Shown here one piece after another: positions 56,978 to 63,695 of a stretch of DNA of 64,000 nt. The stretch's first letter is position 1. The number at the start of each line of letters is the position of its first letter. The stretch is from Alphaproteobacteria bacterium (GTDB taxonomy: Bacteria; Pseudomonadota; Alphaproteobacteria; Puniceispirillales; Puniceispirillaceae), in assembly GCA_022425485.1 (NCBI GenBank), contig JAKMFL010000060.1:1-64000 (forward strand). Direction: 5' to 3'. The notes under the pieces are model-generated. The model had not been told where the DNA came from. It was given only the letters and a program-made list of their open reading frames with translations, and made no database searches. The position numbers and the translations under genes were made by a program.

Positions 56978-57301
56978 ATGCCGCGTCTGACCACCGATAT
57001 CATTGTTGCGGCTGGGCTGCGCCAAGCTGCCAGCATGGGTATCTTTGCGGCCATTCTTCGGAAAGGTGATGAGCGTGCAGGTGCACTCTTTGTTGAGGTG
57101 GAAAAAAGCGCAACCGAAGCACGCTTGCTAGCGCGTCAATTAAACTATGATAATGAATATGAGTGGGTCTGTATTACCGGTGAGGGATGGGTGAGCAGCA
57201 GGACAGTTCAAGAACGGCTTACGCGCGAGACAGAATATGACCCAGATTGTTGGATTGTCTCTGTGCAAGATAGCGAAGGGCGCAATATTTTCACCCTCTG
57301 A
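56978..57301 (+). CDS. DUF1491 family protein
   Basis: A 107-residue protein of unknown function. The family features seen are M-P-R-L-T-T-D-I-I-V-A-A-G-L-R, the R-K-G-D-E-R-A-G segment and the ending E-Y-D-P-D-C-W-I-V. No signal or membrane segment. It is restricted mainly to alphaproteobacteria and sits after DUF1674 here. A functional link to succinate dehydrogenase assembly would be speculation. The ATG follows an AATA stretch with a weak Shine-Dalgarno. Confidence 0.85.
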   Translation: MPRLTTDIIVAAGLRQAASMGIFAAILRKGDERAGALFVEVEKSATEARLLARQLNYDNEYEWVCITGEGWVSSRTVQERLTRETEYDPDCWIVSVQDSEGRNIFTL

Positions 57302-57513: not shown

Positions 57514-58851
57514 ATGACTAAATCTATCGCTATTCATAAACTGCAAGATTATAGCGCCGCGCAAATCGCCACCTTGCAAAGCCGCACCGAAGATGATCTA
57601 GGCCCCTATATGGATGCTGTGAGGCCGGTCATTGATGCGGTGCGCGACAAAGGTGATGCCGCGCTGGTTCATTATGCAAAAGCTTTTGATAATGCAGATC
57701 TGAATAATAAATCGCTATTGGCGAGCAAAGCAGAAATTGATGCTGCTTTTGATAAGCTGGATGCAAAGCTTGTAGATGCGTTGGAATATGCTGCTGATAA
57801 TATTCGCCGCTTCCATGAAAAGCAAAAACCAGAAGCAGATTGGCGTATGGAAATCCGGCCAGGAATAGAGGTAGGGGAGCGCGCCTACCCAATAGATAAG
57901 GTGGCGCTTTATTCGCCGCGCGGAAAAGGATGTTTTCCCTCCGTAACCTTAATGACAGCGATACCAGCTGTCGTGGCCGGCGTGCCGGAGCCAGTGATTC
58001 TAACGCCGCCAAGCGCTGATGGGGATATTGACCCGGCAACACTCGTAGCAGCAAGGCTTGCAGGGGTTGAAAAAATAGCCAAAGCTGGCGGTGCACAGGC
58101 AGTTGCCGCCGCCGCCTTTGGTACGGCATCTATCCCAAAATGCCGCAAGATTGAAGGGCCGGGCAGCCCGTATTTTGTTGCTGCAAAAAGAGTTTTGGCT
58201 GGCAAGATCGGATCGCGCTTACCCGCTGGCCCAAGTGAGGTGATTATTCTTAGTGATGAGACAGTTGACCCACGCCTAGCGGCGCTAGACATCCTGATAG
58301 AGTGCGAACATGGCGCAGATTCCTCCGGCTTCCTTGTTACTTGCTCAGAGACATTTGCACATGCGGTAGCCGCCGCTTTGCCAGCATATTTGGCACAAAT
58401 GTCTGCTGAACGGCAGGCCTATGCACTGGCAGTATTGTCAGGTATGAATGGCGGTATCGTGCTGGCAGAAAATGACCAGCAAGCTTATGATTTCATTAAT
58501 GAATATGCGCCTGAACATTGCCAAATTCTGTCTCGCGAGGCAGATAGACACCTGCCTTATATCCAGACAGCATCTGAAATCCTGTTAGGGGAATATGCCG
58601 CTGGATCGCTTGCAAATTATATGATGGGCCCGAATTGTGTGCTGCCTACATCTGGGGCAGCGCATGCGCATGCACCGCTTGGCGTGCATGATTTTATGCG
58701 CACCGCATCTATTGGCCGCGTAGATGCTGTTGGCTTTGCAGAAATGGCACCAAAAACAGAGGTTTTTGCCCGCTATGAAGGGTTTGACGCCCATGCAAAT
58801 GCTGTATCAGATCTGCGCTTGCCCCTCATTAAAGGGCATAATAATAAATAA
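57514..58851 (+). CDS. Histidinol dehydrogenase-family oxidoreductase (paralogue)
   Basis: A 445-residue HisD-fold dehydrogenase. General HisD features are Y-S-P-R-G, A-G-G-A-Q-A-V-A-A-A-A-F-G-T, E-G-P-G-S-P-Y, A-G-P-S-E-V-I-I-L and the catalytic N-E-Y-A-P-E-H (Glu334, His335). Aligned by eye to E. coli HisD, two of the four zinc ligands differ: Gln259 is Glu263 and Asp360 is Asn368. His262 (His266) and His419 (His427) are kept, and N-H-V-L-P-T reads N-C-V-L-P-T. It is not among his genes. It may therefore oxidise a different alcohol. HisD function itself remains possible if no other copy exists. ATG 57514 preferred over TTG 57505. Confidence 0.75.
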   Translation: MTKSIAIHKLQDYSAAQIATLQSRTEDDLGPYMDAVRPVIDAVRDKGDAALVHYAKAFDNADLNNKSLLASKAEIDAAFDKLDAKLVDALEYAADNIRRFHEKQKPEADWRMEIRPGIEVGERAYPIDKVALYSPRGKGCFPSVTLMTAIPAVVAGVPEPVILTPPSADGDIDPATLVAARLAGVEKIAKAGGAQAVAAAAFGTASIPKCRKIEGPGSPYFVAAKRVLAGKIGSRLPAGPSEVIILSDETVDPRLAALDILIECEHGADSSGFLVTCSETFAHAVAAALPAYLAQMSAERQAYALAVLSGMNGGIVLAENDQQAYDFINEYAPEHCQILSREADRHLPYIQTASEILLGEYAAGSLANYMMGPNCVLPTSGAAHAHAPLGVHDFMRTASIGRVDAVGFAEMAPKTEVFARYEGFDAHANAVSDLRLPLIKGHNNK

Positions 58852-58865
58852 TCCCCTCCGCAATA

Positions 58866-59912
58866 TTAATAGGGCATGGGATGGGCTTTATGGGCGGCGT
58901 CAATCTCGTCAACCACCTCTTTGCTTAGCGTTAGATCAGCACCTGCTATAATATGTTCTAGCTGTTCTTGGGTGGTAGCACCAAAGATTACCGATCCCAT
59001 AAAGGGGCGCATCATTGCCCACGAAAGGGCCATATGCACAGGGTCTATCCCATATTTTTTCGCAATATTAAGATAGGCGTCAATGGCTGGCCAGACACGC
59101 GGCGTGATGCGGCCACCAAGCCCGGGGGTGGCGTTCATCCGCGCACCTATCGGCAGGGCTTCCCCGCCCTTATATTTGCCGGTCAGAAGGCCAGCCGCAA
59201 GCGGTGAGAAGGCCAGCAAATCCACTTGTTCATGATGGCAAAGCTCAGCAAGGTCTAAATCAAACAGCCGGCACAGCAAGCTATATTCATTCTGGATGCA
59301 CAGCACGCGTGGGTGGTTTGATGCCTTGGCAGCTTGCAGCCATACAGATGTTCCCCATGCGCTTTCATTCGATAGGCCAAAATAGCGAATTTTACCTGCC
59401 TTTACCTGCTTGTCTATCTCATCCAACACTTCTTCAACATGCTCAAGAAAGGCAGTGCTGTCCTGTCCAGTTGGGTCATAATGCCAGTTTTTGCGAAACA
59501 TATAAGAGCCGCGATTTGGCCAATGTAGCTGATAAATATCGATATAGTCGGTATTCATAGAGGCAAGCGAATTATCTAATGCGGTGCGGATGGTTGTTGG
59601 CGTAATGGGCGCGCCTTCGCGCACAAATTTATGACCCTCGCCAGTTACTTTGGTCGCGATAACCATCTCGCCGCGGCGTTTTTTAATGCCTGGCCAATTG
59701 CCTATCACCCGCTCAGTATCGCCAGAGGTTTCTGCACGCATCGGGTTAGTTGGATACATCTCGGCCGTGTCGATAAGATTGATGCCATGGGCAAGGGCGG
59801 TATCTATTTGGCGCCAGCCTTCTTCTGGCGTGGTCTGCTCTCCCCATGTCATAGAACCTAAACAGAGTTTGCTAACCTCTAGCGATGAGTAGCCCAGTTT
59901 TTTAGTTTGCAC
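58866..59912 (-). CDS. Aldo/keto reductase, Tas-like
   Basis: A 348-residue NADP-dependent aldo/keto reductase. The catalytic tetrad is Asp48 and Tyr53 (NLIDTAEMYP), Lys88 (IATKVTG) and His130 (IYQLHWPN). The long H-W-P-N-R-G-S-Y loop is typical of the Tas/YdbC-like branch. V-I-F-G-A-T-T-Q-E-Q-L near the C-terminus binds the nicotinamide cofactor phosphate. Substrate unknown. It converges with the HisD-family gene with only 14 bp between stops. Confidence 0.9.
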   Translation of the reverse strand: MQTKKLGYSSLEVSKLCLGSMTWGEQTTPEEGWRQIDTALAHGINLIDTAEMYPTNPMRAETSGDTERVIGNWPGIKKRRGEMVIATKVTGEGHKFVREGAPITPTTIRTALDNSLASMNTDYIDIYQLHWPNRGSYMFRKNWHYDPTGQDSTAFLEHVEEVLDEIDKQVKAGKIRYFGLSNESAWGTSVWLQAAKASNHPRVLCIQNEYSLLCRLFDLDLAELCHHEQVDLLAFSPLAAGLLTGKYKGGEALPIGARMNATPGLGGRITPRVWPAIDAYLNIAKKYGIDPVHMALSWAMMRPFMGSVIFGATTQEQLEHIIAGADLTLSKEVVDEIDAAHKAHPMPY

Positions 59913-61732: not shown

Positions 61733-62635
61733 TTAAGTTGATAAGCGAGAGAGGATGTTTTTTGACAGAGACAGAAAAGTTTTTATATATAATTTTTCAC
61801 TATCGCGGCGGCGTACAGCGGCATATAGCTTCCGGCTTGTGCCTTTCTTCGTAAGCCTCTTTTGGGTTAGATGATCTGTCTCGCGCGAGCTTTGCAATAC
61901 CCAGTCTGGCAAAACGCTTACCCCCTTATTGGCACTGACCAGCAATAAAATGACCGATGTTAGTTCAATTTGCCGGATACTTAACGGCTCGATACCAGCA
62001 GGTAATAATAGCAGATTAAATAAGTCTAAGCGTTCTTTTGGAACTGGATAGGTGATGATATTCTGGTCGGCAAAATCCTCTGCATCAATATAGGGGCGTT
62101 TTGATAAGAGGTGGTTTCTTGAAGCAATAAAAATGGGCTCATAGGTGAATAGTTCGTGAAATTCAATGCCGGCTAGTTCTTCAGGGTCTGCTGAAATCAC
62201 CAAATCCACCTCCTCATTTTGTAAAGCTTCTATCGCTTTGAAAGCAAGGCCAGGCTTGATATCTACATCAACATTGCTGTGATGGTCGCGAAACAGATTC
62301 AAAACAGGGAACAGCCATTCAAAACAGGCATGACATTCGATCGCGATAAACATTCTGCCTGTTTGGCCAGACCGCAAATCAACAAATCGGGATTTTAGCT
62401 TATCCACTTCCGATAAAATGCGTTCAGCCGCTTCTATCAATTCCAGTCCCTCTGGCGATAGTTTTAACGGGCGGGTTTCTGGGACGAATAACTCTACCCC
62501 TATTTGCTCTCTGATATAGCGTAATTGATGCGATATCGCTGATTGCGTCATATTAAGCTGTTCTGTGGCACGTTGTAAGGAGCCTGTCTTGTGAATAGCT
62601 AGGATGGTGCGAAGATGTTTAAGTTCTATATTCAT
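61733..62635 (-). CDS. metR: MetR-type LysR regulator
   Basis: A 300-residue LysR-family activator. The N-terminal winged helix-turn-helix is at about residues 3-60 (L-R-T-I-L-A-I-H-K-T-G-S-L-Q-R-A). The effector domain has the MetR-specific IECHACFEWLFPVL near residue 97 and TYPVPKERLDLFNLLLLPAG near 194. MetR activates methionine/C1 genes with homocysteine as coeffector. It is divergent from metF, with a perfect TGAA-N5-TTCA site between them, so regulation of metF and autoregulation are very likely. Confidence 0.9.
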   Translation of the reverse strand: MNIELKHLRTILAIHKTGSLQRATEQLNMTQSAISHQLRYIREQIGVELFVPETRPLKLSPEGLELIEAAERILSEVDKLKSRFVDLRSGQTGRMFIAIECHACFEWLFPVLNLFRDHHSNVDVDIKPGLAFKAIEALQNEEVDLVISADPEELAGIEFHELFTYEPIFIASRNHLLSKRPYIDAEDFADQNIITYPVPKERLDLFNLLLLPAGIEPLSIRQIELTSVILLLVSANKGVSVLPDWVLQSSRETDHLTQKRLTKKGTSRKLYAAVRRRDSEKLYIKTFLSLSKNILSRLST

Positions 62636-62664
62636 TAATATTTTTCATAAACTATATGTGAATT

Positions 62665-62679
62665 ATGAATTAGATTCAT
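62665..62679. promoter_or_regulatory. MetR operator (TGAA-N5-TTCA) between metR and metF
   Basis: ATGAATTAGATTCAT is a perfect 5+5-bp inverted repeat with a 5-nt spacer, matching the MetR consensus TGAA-N5-TTCA. Extra half-sites lie close by (TTCA at 62645-62648 and TGAA at 62659-62662), as expected for LysR-type binding and autoregulation. The site is 51-65 bp before the metF ATG. Confidence 0.8.
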
Positions 62680-62729
62680 ATTAACGATTTCTTTAAGTAA
62701 AGGGAATAGGGTTTTTAAAGGAAATCGAC

Positions 62730-63695
62730 ATGCACGGCCAATCTCAGCCAAATGGAGTTTCAATAAACGGCATTTATCCGCTAAATGACGGCGGTGAGGT
62801 TCAGGTAAAGCCGGGCAGAAAAGCAAAATTGTCATTTGAAGTTTTCCCCGCTAAAACACAAGAAGCCGTTGCGGATCTGCTGGCAGAATTGCGTTGTCTT
62901 TCGGTCTATAATCCAGAGTTTATTTCAGTCACCTACGGGGCAGGGGGTAGTGCGCGTGAAGGCACAATCCAGACATCCAAAGCAATACAAGAAGAACTTT
63001 CAACAGATGTAATGGCGCATCTTACTTTTTCAAATCAAGGGCGCGGTGATGTGCTGGCGGTTGCCGACCGATTAAAAGATATAGGCATTAAACAAATATT
63101 GGCACTTCGCGGAGATGATGTTGGCAAGGCTGATACGCCTATTTCTGTGCCGTTTGGCGGCTCGATTGAATTTATAAAAGGTCTTGCGGATAGGGGATGG
63201 CAGAATATCCGGGTTGCGGCCTATCCAGATATGCATAAGGACGCGAAAAGTGCTGATGCCGATTTTGACTGGTTGCTGGCCAAATTTGATGCTGGCGCAT
63301 CCGAAGCGATAACCCAATTCTTTTTTGATGCGGAAAGCTTTTTTCGGTTGAGAGATAGGCTTGATAAATTCGGCCTCGCGGACAGGCTTATACCGGGCAT
63401 TCTAGCCTTTGATGATATATCTAAAATGCTTGGTTTTGCAGGGCATTGCGGGGTGTGTATTCCTCCAGCTTTGACAACGGAGCTTGAGAAAAGCGCGCGA
63501 ACAGACTTGTCTGCAGCGCACAGCCTTTCTGTTTTGCTAGATTTATGGCTACGATTGAGCGCACAAGGGGTAGATAGATACCATATCTATACCCTAAATA
63601 AAGCCCAGCCTACGCAAACATTATTGGAATTGCTTGGCATACCAAAGCACCCAGATGCTTTGCCTTCTTGTCATAAGCAAACAATAATGTCTTAG
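62730..63695 (+). CDS. metF: Methylenetetrahydrofolate reductase
   Basis: A 321-residue FAD-dependent TIM-barrel enzyme making 5-methyl-THF for methionine synthesis, or running in reverse when methyl groups are oxidised. Family marks are L-S-F-E-V-F-P-A-K-T (catalytic Glu), F-I-S-V-T-Y-G-A-G-G-S, A-H-L-T-F, I-L-A-L-R-G-D, and A-I-T-Q-F-F-F-D. The N-terminus is ~30 residues longer than E. coli MetF. AAGGAA precedes the ATG. With metR divergent and a probable corrinoid gene downstream, it may belong to a B12-dependent methyl-transfer module. Confidence 0.95.
   Translation: MHGQSQPNGVSINGIYPLNDGGEVQVKPGRKAKLSFEVFPAKTQEAVADLLAELRCLSVYNPEFISVTYGAGGSAREGTIQTSKAIQEELSTDVMAHLTFSNQGRGDVLAVADRLKDIGIKQILALRGDDVGKADTPISVPFGGSIEFIKGLADRGWQNIRVAAYPDMHKDAKSADADFDWLLAKFDAGASEAITQFFFDAESFFRLRDRLDKFGLADRLIPGILAFDDISKMLGFAGHCGVCIPPALTTELEKSARTDLSAAHSLSVLLDLWLRLSAQGVDRYHIYTLNKAQPTQTLLELLGIPKHPDALPSCHKQTIMS

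What the first reader, a model, noticed from the sequence alone, without database searches (positions are those of the whole stretch)
57514..58851. HisD-family enzyme with an altered zinc site
By eye alignment with E. coli HisD, the catalytic Glu-His pair (Y-A-P-E-H) and the zinc ligands His262 and His419 are retained. Gln259 becomes Glu (I-E-C-E-H) and Asp360 becomes Asn (A-N-Y), and the N-H-V-L-P-T signature reads N-C-V-L-P-T. The gene is away from his genes, beside an aldo/keto reductase and DUF1491. It may use another metal or substrate, as known for HisD paralogues such as sulfopropanediol dehydrogenase.
Basis: partly seen in the sequence, partly recalled or inferred. Interest (0 to 1): 0.5.

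Follow-up and report, generated by a model that had tools for sequence, protein, structure and literature searches.

The report
Histidine enzyme with swapped zinc ligands
A marine SAR116 bacterium carries a histidinol dehydrogenase in which two of the four textbook zinc-holding residues have traded places, and comparative genomics suggests that this odd form has taken over the last step of histidine synthesis from the ordinary enzyme more than once.

Summary
In detail: against E. coli HisD the protein has Glu for Gln259, Asn for Asp360, Cys for His367; His262, His419, Glu326-His327 and Glu414 are kept. The reading as a sulfopropanediol-type paralogue is not supported. The genome has three HisD-family genes; the other two are HpsN-like Q/D proteins, one an evident HpsN. 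The window gene is the only candidate HisD in a genome with hisG, B, H, A, F, E, and the hisG-UPF0262 site, which holds hisD in relatives, is empty. E/N and Q/D proteins split at one tree branch and no mixed pair was seen in 198 distinct rows. Of 61 related genomes 24 have only E/N, 33 only canonical, none both, 4 neither. In three other families an E/N gene is the genome's only full-length HisD-family gene and lies with his genes. Best reading: a histidinol dehydrogenase with carboxylate and carboxamide metal ligands swapped, which replaced the canonical gene. Activity and metal are untested. E/N genes also occur in catabolic-looking clusters, so a catabolic role is the main rival.

The parts
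57514..58851 (+). HisD-family gene of the E259/N360 type (445 aa)
58165..58167 (+). Ser218 codon (E. coli Asn211, an NAD contact; Ser in 110 of 112 E/N sequences)
   Evidence: NAD contact from PMC5585171 passages
58300..58302 (+). Glu263 codon (E. coli zinc ligand Gln259)
58309..58311 (+). His266 codon (E. coli zinc ligand His262, kept)
58513..58518 (+). Glu334-His335 codons (E. coli catalytic Glu326-His327, kept)
58615..58617 (+). Asn368 codon (E. coli zinc ligand Asp360)
58636..58638 (+). Cys375 codon (E. coli His367; C/A/N/H in the E/N group)
58777..58779 (+). Glu422 codon (E. coli Glu414; the equivalent Medicago Glu455 holds the imidazole from the partner subunit; kept)
   Evidence: contact from PMC5585171 passages; equivalence by motif
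58792..58794 (+). His427 codon (E. coli zinc ligand His419 of the partner subunit, kept)
56978..57301 (+). DUF1491 gene, upstream neighbour in all 20 f1 SAR116 loci compared; neighbour only, no role claimed
58866..59912 (-). aldo/keto reductase, convergent neighbour, seen beside hisD in 2 of 20 f1 SAR116 loci (the two closest); no role claimed

Best explanation
The gene encodes this SAR116 bacterium's histidinol dehydrogenase for histidine synthesis. It belongs to a distinct HisD clade in which the axial Gln and the equatorial Asp of the zinc site have been exchanged for Glu and Asn, so that the metal still sees two His, one carboxylate and one carboxamide, with unchanged total charge, in swapped places. 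The Glu-His pair and the Glu that holds the imidazole are kept, so the four-electron, NAD-dependent oxidation of histidinol would run as in HisD. The lineage acquired this gene from the broad E/N family, and the canonical hisD was lost from its place between hisG and UPF0262. Shown: the swap, the single branch between E/N and Q/D, the absence of canonical hisD from this draft genome, the close hisG-UPF0262 junction, the either/or pattern in relatives, and E/N genes lying with his genes in other families. Inferred: order of events, activity on histidinol, metal identity, ligand geometry.
For: Only non-HpsN-like HisD of a 99.86% complete draft that has hisG, hisB, hisH, hisA, hisF, hisE. MurA-DUF2948-hisG-UPF0262-Maf is syntenic with canonical-type relatives, which carry hisD there; here hisG and UPF0262 are 5 bp apart. 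61 relatives: 24 E/N only, 33 canonical only, 0 both, 4 neither (61-83% complete); of the 38 further family hits in the 24 E/N genomes, 37 read as HpsN-like and one is an N-terminal fragment without the columns. Two separate acquisitions inside the order (AU p = 5.6e-5 against one). Class-wide, of 278 genomes with hisB: 15 of 19 E/N carriers lack canonical HisD by the profile cut-off, against 19 of 259 non-carriers, Fisher p = 2.3e-12; PF00815 then found canonical-type Q/D genes in 9 of these 19, C-terminal parts in 2, only HpsN-like genes in 2, none in 6. In f139, f164 and f38 (7 genomes) the E/N gene, the only full-length PF00815 gene, lies with hisB, hisH and hisF. Purifying selection. Fold as HisD, Z 40.6 to 5vld.
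Against: In the tree the SAR116 f1 proteins nest among Rhizobiales and Granulosicoccaceae proteins; of 72 non-f1 loci compared, ABC-transporter ATPase-type ORFs are near in 37 and gamma-glutamyltranspeptidase-type ORFs in 16, which looks catabolic. 14 of 47 E/N-carrying genomes also have canonical HisD. Two f88 genomes (94% complete) and G246 (81%) have an E/N gene but no hisB. The his-cluster E/N genes may be a clade of their own (one clade not rejected, p = 0.149), so their function need not carry over. The window gene is not with his genes. The associations are not corrected for phylogeny: the 15 E/N carriers without canonical HisD fall in 7 families, and one (G261) is only 74% complete. 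The emptied hisG site was read in one E/N genome. hisC, hisI, hisZ and the phosphatase were not looked for.
Confidence: 0.74

Rival explanations
1. It is a catabolic dehydrogenase for another amino alcohol or diol, kept in SAR116 for that role; histidine is obtained from outside or its last step is done by something else.
For: Its nearest non-SAR116 relatives often lie near transporter genes; plasmid E/N genes of four species sit with a solute-binding protein and permease genes and an alcohol dehydrogenase, and variously hisC-like, SDR, hutC-like and alpha-hydroxy acid oxidase genes; f88 has E/N without hisB; 14 of 47 E/N genomes also have canonical hisD.
Against: In SAR116 f1 it sits among housekeeping genes: RsmB, DUF1491, DusA and IspZ all present in 16 of 20 loci; three of the other four are short contigs and L085 lacks DusA and IspZ within 8 kb. 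Its presence tracks absence of canonical hisD while hisG, B, H, A, F, E remain in the window's genome. HpsN-like paralogues occur in canonical-type genomes as well, and CpHpsN showed no activity on histidinol (PMC11382572 passages).
Confidence: 0.18
2. It is bifunctional: it makes histidine and also oxidises a catabolic substrate, an enzyme recruited from catabolism that kept both roles.
For: The clade holds both members lying with his genes and members near transporters; position 367 varies within it.
Against: No catabolic partner genes recognised beside the window gene.
Confidence: 0.06
3. A canonical hisD exists but is missing from the assembly, and the window gene is redundant.
For: The genome is a 90-contig draft.
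Against: 99.86% completeness; the site where relatives keep hisD is intact on one contig and lacks it; no canonical hisD was found in any of the 24 E/N genomes of the order.
Confidence: 0.02

Closest known systems
Histidinol dehydrogenase HisD (E. coli 1kae, Medicago 5vld, Brucella 4g07; PF00815, TIGR00069)
   Same: Fold, length, Glu326-His327, His262, His419, Ser237, Tyr361, Glu414; presence in a genome with his genes; in other families the same clade lies with his genes.
   Different: Gln259 to Glu, Asp360 to Asn, His367 to Cys, Asn211 to Ser, Gly133 to Arg, Ala136 to Gly, Leu416 to Phe. All 11 distinct HisD-family sequences listed in the PDB have Gln259, and Asp360 except an engineered D352A mutant of HpsN.
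(R)-DHPS / sulfopropanediol 3-dehydrogenase HpsN
   Same: PF00815 fold, catalytic Glu-His.
   Different: HpsN keeps Gln/Asp ligands and has GRY[AS]H and Lys after Asp; the window protein has RGKGC and Tyr. The genome's evident HpsN is another gene, L001.
Sinorhizobium meliloti pSymA hisD and similar plasmid-borne hisD genes
   Same: Same E/N ligand pair and signature residues; about 51% identical to the window protein.
   Different: Ala at 367; beside transporter, alcohol dehydrogenase and hutC-like genes. That this gene is SMa0398 (listed as hisD2 in PMC2912261) and that S. meliloti also has a chromosomal canonical hisD are recalled, not tested. The passage seen reports only expression in a tolC mutant.

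Membership tests
HisD (histidinol dehydrogenase) | PF00815 / TIGR00069 match above the curated cut-off | tested here: met
   431.4 and 411.6 bits; TIGR00069 is also passed by HpsN-like proteins at 434.6 and 426.1 bits, so it does not settle function
HisD (histidinol dehydrogenase) | HisD fold | tested here: met
   AlphaFold2 mean pLDDT 87.7; VIA-align Z 40.6, 375 residues, rmsd 2.2 to 5vld; the 374-386 loop is under pLDDT 50
HisD (histidinol dehydrogenase) | Zinc ligands Gln259, His262, Asp360, His419 | tested here: not met
   E, H, N, H: two of four replaced, reciprocally. It may work like a HisD but is a variant outside the strict ligand definition
HisD (histidinol dehydrogenase) | Catalytic Glu326-His327 and substrate Glu414 | tested here: met
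   present in the window protein and in 112 of 112 distinct E/N rows
HisD (histidinol dehydrogenase) | Serves histidine synthesis in the organism | tested here: inconclusive
   only candidate in a genome with his genes; either/or with canonical hisD; E/N genes with his genes elsewhere; no activity data
HisD (histidinol dehydrogenase) | Oxidises L-histidinol to histidine with NAD+ | not testable with these tools
   needs assay or complementation
HpsN (DHPS 3-dehydrogenase) | GRY[AS]H motif with sulfonate-binding His126 | tested here: not met
   window protein has RGKGC at these columns; motif from PMC11382572 passages
HpsN (DHPS 3-dehydrogenase) | Lys after the zinc Asp (Lys353) | tested here: not met
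   Tyr369 in the window protein, Lys in L001; the 27 HpsN-like rows were sorted by this Lys and Thr237, so their count proves nothing more
HpsN (DHPS 3-dehydrogenase) | hpsO/hpsP (SDR, zinc ADH) beside the gene | tested here: not met
   neighbours are DUF1491, aldo/keto reductase, DusA, IspZ

The most novel reading that the evidence does not exclude
The E/N clade is a second solution to the HisD metal site in which the fixed and the mobile ligand trade roles. In Medicago HisD Asp is bound with and without substrate and Gln joins only with substrate; here the Glu would be fixed and the Asn would switch. This shifts metal preference (for example towards Mn or Co), so that lineages such as surface-ocean SAR116 repeatedly replaced the zinc HisD by an E/N enzyme of catabolic origin to make histidine with little zinc.
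Probability: 0.1. Interest if true: 0.75.

Novelty: new variant of a known kind. Interest (0 to 1): 0.55.

Why it matters
HisD is a textbook zinc enzyme, named as an antibiotic and herbicide target (PMC5585171 abstract and passages), and its four ligands are treated as fixed. A clade with a reciprocal ligand swap, with no mixed intermediate in the sequences read here, is a natural double-mutant experiment on how a metal site can be rewired, and its members appear to replace the ordinary enzyme in several lineages. Practically, TIGR00069 calls HisD, HpsN and this clade by one name, so automatic annotation hides the difference, and inhibitor design based on Q/D structures may mislead for these bacteria.

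Tried and rejected
HpsN/sulfopropanediol reading: rejected on motif, Lys, neighbours and ligands. Ligands conserved at shifted positions: rejected by alignment. Azospirillum hisD as genetic proof (PMC5764234 and PMC7311316 passages): dropped, because the best Azospirillum plasmid-record matches are 69-72% identical to a canonical HisD, while none of the 16 best matches to an E/N protein is Azospirillum; their ligands were not read. Cys375 as a new metal ligand: unlikely, since Ala, Asn or His stand there in 60 of 112 E/N rows and the Medicago His408 touches substrate through its backbone carbonyl (PMC5585171 passages; equivalence to E. coli His367 by motif). Use of the predicted model for metal geometry: not possible; single chain, His419 comes from the partner, loop 374-386 under pLDDT 50, coordinates not at hand. 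Aldehyde dehydrogenases appear in the structure list at Z about 12 and were not pursued.

Literature: searches for HisD ligand variants, HisD paralogues, displacement, SAR116/Nitratireductor HisD and S. meliloti hisD (listings seen, capped) showed nothing on an E/N-type HisD; the library holds open-licence papers only. The Barbosa 2002 paper was not held. A term search of the main text of the SAR116 papers PMC12262181 and PMC8547437 gave no 'histidine'. No paper was read whole.

Limits: the 80 genome-contig loci are the best 80 of 384. The E/N set was fetched by likeness to the window protein and comes mostly from Alphaproteobacteria, so mixed ligand pairs elsewhere are not excluded. In one search the groups are defined by the ligand pair itself; rows with more than 120 gaps over the E. 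coli columns and identical rows were dropped, partial genes among them (in one search one partial gene, L276, aligned badly at 259, and three others lacked one or both ligand columns). In one search one of 40 handles was not held; all 47 were searched. The transporter-cluster description rests on 20 representative proteins typed by Pfam, two of which had no match; ORF calling in these GC-rich loci was mechanical.

Full report
Observation. The gene at 57514-58851 + is intact, matches PF00815 with 431.4 bits and TIGR00069 with 411.6 bits, and evolves under purifying selection, dN/dS about 0.04 against a 96% identical relative. Aligned with E. coli K-12 HisD and 71 other relatives, it has Glu263 for Gln259, His266 for His262, Asn368 for Asp360 and His427 for His419; the catalytic pair is Glu334-His335, E. 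coli Glu414 is Glu422, and Cys375 stands for His367.

Place in the genome. The window lies in contig C66 of a 1.99 Mb draft, 90 contigs, 99.86% complete. The genome holds three PF00815 genes. L001 matches the Cupriavidus HpsN structure with 579 bits, carries GRYAH, and lies beside a DctM-type TRAP transporter gene and a zinc-type alcohol dehydrogenase gene. L002 is a second Q/D, Thr237, Lys361 protein beside a short-chain dehydrogenase. hisB, hisH, hisA, hisF and hisE lie together in C77, about 80 kb or more from L002, and hisG lies in C62. hisC, hisI, hisZ and the phosphatase were not sought.

The missing canonical gene. In three SAR116 relatives read (L236, L237, L239) the order is MurA, DUF2948, hisG, hisD, then UPF0262 (no match in L237) and Maf; L238 has MurA, DUF2948, hisG, hisD, Maf; L234 and L235, of the window's own family, have MurA, DUF2948, hisD, UPF0262, Maf with hisG elsewhere, and L233 the same without a UPF0262 match. 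In the window's genome the site reads MurA, DUF2948, hisG, UPF0262, a low-molecular-weight-phosphatase-like gene (named by eye), a small gene, Maf, with 5 bp between hisG and UPF0262 as called and no hisD. So the canonical gene is absent from that place, not hidden by an assembly gap there. This junction was read in one E/N genome only.

Either/or in relatives. In 61 genomes of the order I read the ligands of all 24 E/N genes and all 33 canonical-type genes found. 24 genomes have E/N and no canonical gene, 33 the reverse, none both, and 4 neither; those four are 61-83% complete and hold only HpsN-like genes. The 24 E/N genomes have 38 further family hits: 37 are HpsN-like (Thr237, and Lys361 where that column is present), one is an N-terminal fragment without these columns. 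In canonical-type genomes only 8 of the further hits were read, all HpsN-like. The E/N carriers belong to seven genera of the window's family and one genus of another family. Over 136 genomes of the order 27 carry E/N. The tree puts the two SAR116 groups in different parts of the E/N clade, and holding them together is rejected (AU p = 5.6e-5). RsmB, DUF1491, hisD, DusA and IspZ stand together in 16 of 20 f1 loci.

Class-wide pattern. In 385 alphaproteobacterial genomes drawn evenly, 22 carry E/N at E 1e-86, 253 carry canonical HisD by a canonical-only profile at E 1e-140, and 278 carry hisB. Of the 278: E/N without canonical 15, both 4, canonical only 240, neither 19 (Fisher p = 2.3e-12, not corrected for phylogeny; the 15 fall in 7 families). 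A PF00815 search of the 19 found Q/D genes of canonical type in 9, C-terminal parts with Asp360 in 2, only HpsN-like genes in 2 and nothing in 6. Of the 22 carriers, 3 have no hisB (G219, G333 and the 81% complete G246). In 47 genomes chosen because they carry E/N, 14 also have canonical HisD (597 bits or more) and 33 have nothing above 419 bits, among them 6 of 6 Nitratireductor, Ahrensia sp. R2A130, Aestuariivirga sp. YIM B02566 and two uncultured Granulosicoccus genomes. hisB was checked in only one of the six Nitratireductor genomes, where it is present.

E/N genes with his genes. In f139 (three genomes), f164 (one) and f38 (three) the E/N gene is the only PF00815 gene, apart from a remnant in G169, and lies with hisB, hisH, hisF and, variously, hisA and hisG within the 16-19 kb stretches read. 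This is the strongest sign that E/N enzymes can serve histidine synthesis. These genes may form one clade (AU test does not reject it, p = 0.149), so the inference to SAR116 is not automatic.

The clade. On a 69-row tree built without columns 259, 360 and 367, 51 E/N and 18 Q/D rows are split by one branch with 100/100 support. Among 198 distinct full rows there are 112 E/N, 59 canonical Q/D and 27 HpsN-like Q/D, and no mixed pair (groups named by these residues). Further marks of E/N are Ser for Asn211 (110 of 112), Gly for Ala136 (111 of 112), Arg for Gly133 (98%) and Phe for Leu416; position 367 is C 52, A 44, N 8, H 8. All 11 distinct HisD-family sequences listed in the PDB have Gln259, and Asp360 except an engineered mutant, so no E/N structure was found there.

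How it likely works. In Medicago HisD the zinc is held by His302, Asp401 and His460 of the partner; Gln299 joins when histidinol binds, displacing water; the histidinol oxygen touches His368 and the backbone carbonyl of His408; Glu455 of the partner holds the imidazole (PMC5585171 passages). In HpsN the Asp is the mobile ligand and its Ala mutant showed no activity (PMC11382572 passages). In the window protein both His ligands, the Glu-His pair and the partner Glu are kept, and one carboxylate and one carboxamide remain, in exchanged positions. The simplest reading is a working site with the same charge in which Glu263 is the anionic ligand and Asn368 the neutral one. Loss of the His367 side chain is tolerable if only its backbone is used, which fits the C/A/N/H variety. 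Ser for Asn211 alters a known NAD contact, so cofactor binding may differ too. Metal identity, geometry and activity are inferences. The predicted fold agrees with HisD but says nothing on the metal.

Rival. Relatives outside SAR116 often stand near transporter genes: of 72 loci compared, ABC ATPase-type ORFs in 37 and gamma-glutamyltranspeptidase-type ORFs in 16 (one member of each typed). Plasmid-borne E/N genes of S. meliloti, Phyllobacterium, Agrobacterium and Pacificitalea stand with a solute-binding protein, permeases and an alcohol dehydrogenase gene and, variously, hisC-like, hutC-like, SDR and alpha-hydroxy acid oxidase genes. In one S. meliloti study SMa0398 (hisD2) and SMa0387 (hisC3) are listed at -10.6 and -11.4 in a tolC mutant along with nitrogen-assimilation genes (PMC2912261 passage; unit not seen, probably fold). 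A catabolic origin is therefore plausible, and a catabolic role in SAR116 cannot be excluded; the housekeeping neighbourhood, the either/or pattern and the emptied hisG site speak against it.

Novelty. Literature searches showed no description of an E/N-type HisD in the open-licence library. TIGR00069 does not separate HisD, HpsN and E/N proteins. I file it as a new variant of a known kind: it appears to work like HisD but fails the strict four-ligand definition.

Noticed in passing
L001 1465-2760 (G000:C27): A likely true HpsN (GRYAH motif, 579 bits to CpHpsN) beside a DctM-type TRAP transporter gene and a zinc-type alcohol dehydrogenase gene: predicted use of dihydroxypropanesulfonate by this SAR116 genome. 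A Rap1a-domain gene follows.
   Followed up: partly
L002 1453-2814 (G000:C77): A second Q/D, Thr237/Lys361 HisD-family protein without the GRY[AS]H motif (it reads GGKFPM), beside a short-chain dehydrogenase; similar proteins recur in E/N-type and canonical-type SAR116 genomes; substrate unknown.
   Followed up: partly
L285 411-11135; L286 1-10781; L287 1899-9122; L288 1-11637: E/N hisD genes on plasmids of S. meliloti, Pacificitalea, Phyllobacterium and Agrobacterium lie with transporter and alcohol dehydrogenase genes and, variously, hisC-like, SDR, hutC-like and alpha-hydroxy acid oxidase genes: an uncharacterised catabolic cluster, perhaps for a histidinol-like compound.
   Followed up: partly
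L129 6325-7989 and 15 other loci: ORFs of a gamma-glutamyltranspeptidase cluster beside E/N hisD in 16 of 72 loci (one member typed).
   Followed up: no
L222, L223 (G219, G333, family f88): Small genomes with an E/N hisD as only PF00815 gene but no hisB found: the E/N enzyme does something else there, or the pathway is reduced or incomplete in the assembly.
   Followed up: no
L219 (G169:C14:18743-18973): A short HisD remnant with one in-frame stop lies about 1.7 kb after the E/N hisD near his genes, a possible partial duplicate.
   Followed up: no
TIGR00069 (NCBIfam): The HisD model of type equivalog_domain scores two HpsN-like proteins (434.6, 426.1 bits) above its cut-off of 243.8, so it cannot tell the functions apart.
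   Followed up: yes
window 61733-63695: A MetR-like LysR regulator gene divergent from a MetF-like methylenetetrahydrofolate reductase gene, both below the NCBIfam equivalog cut-offs of their best models.
   Followed up: no
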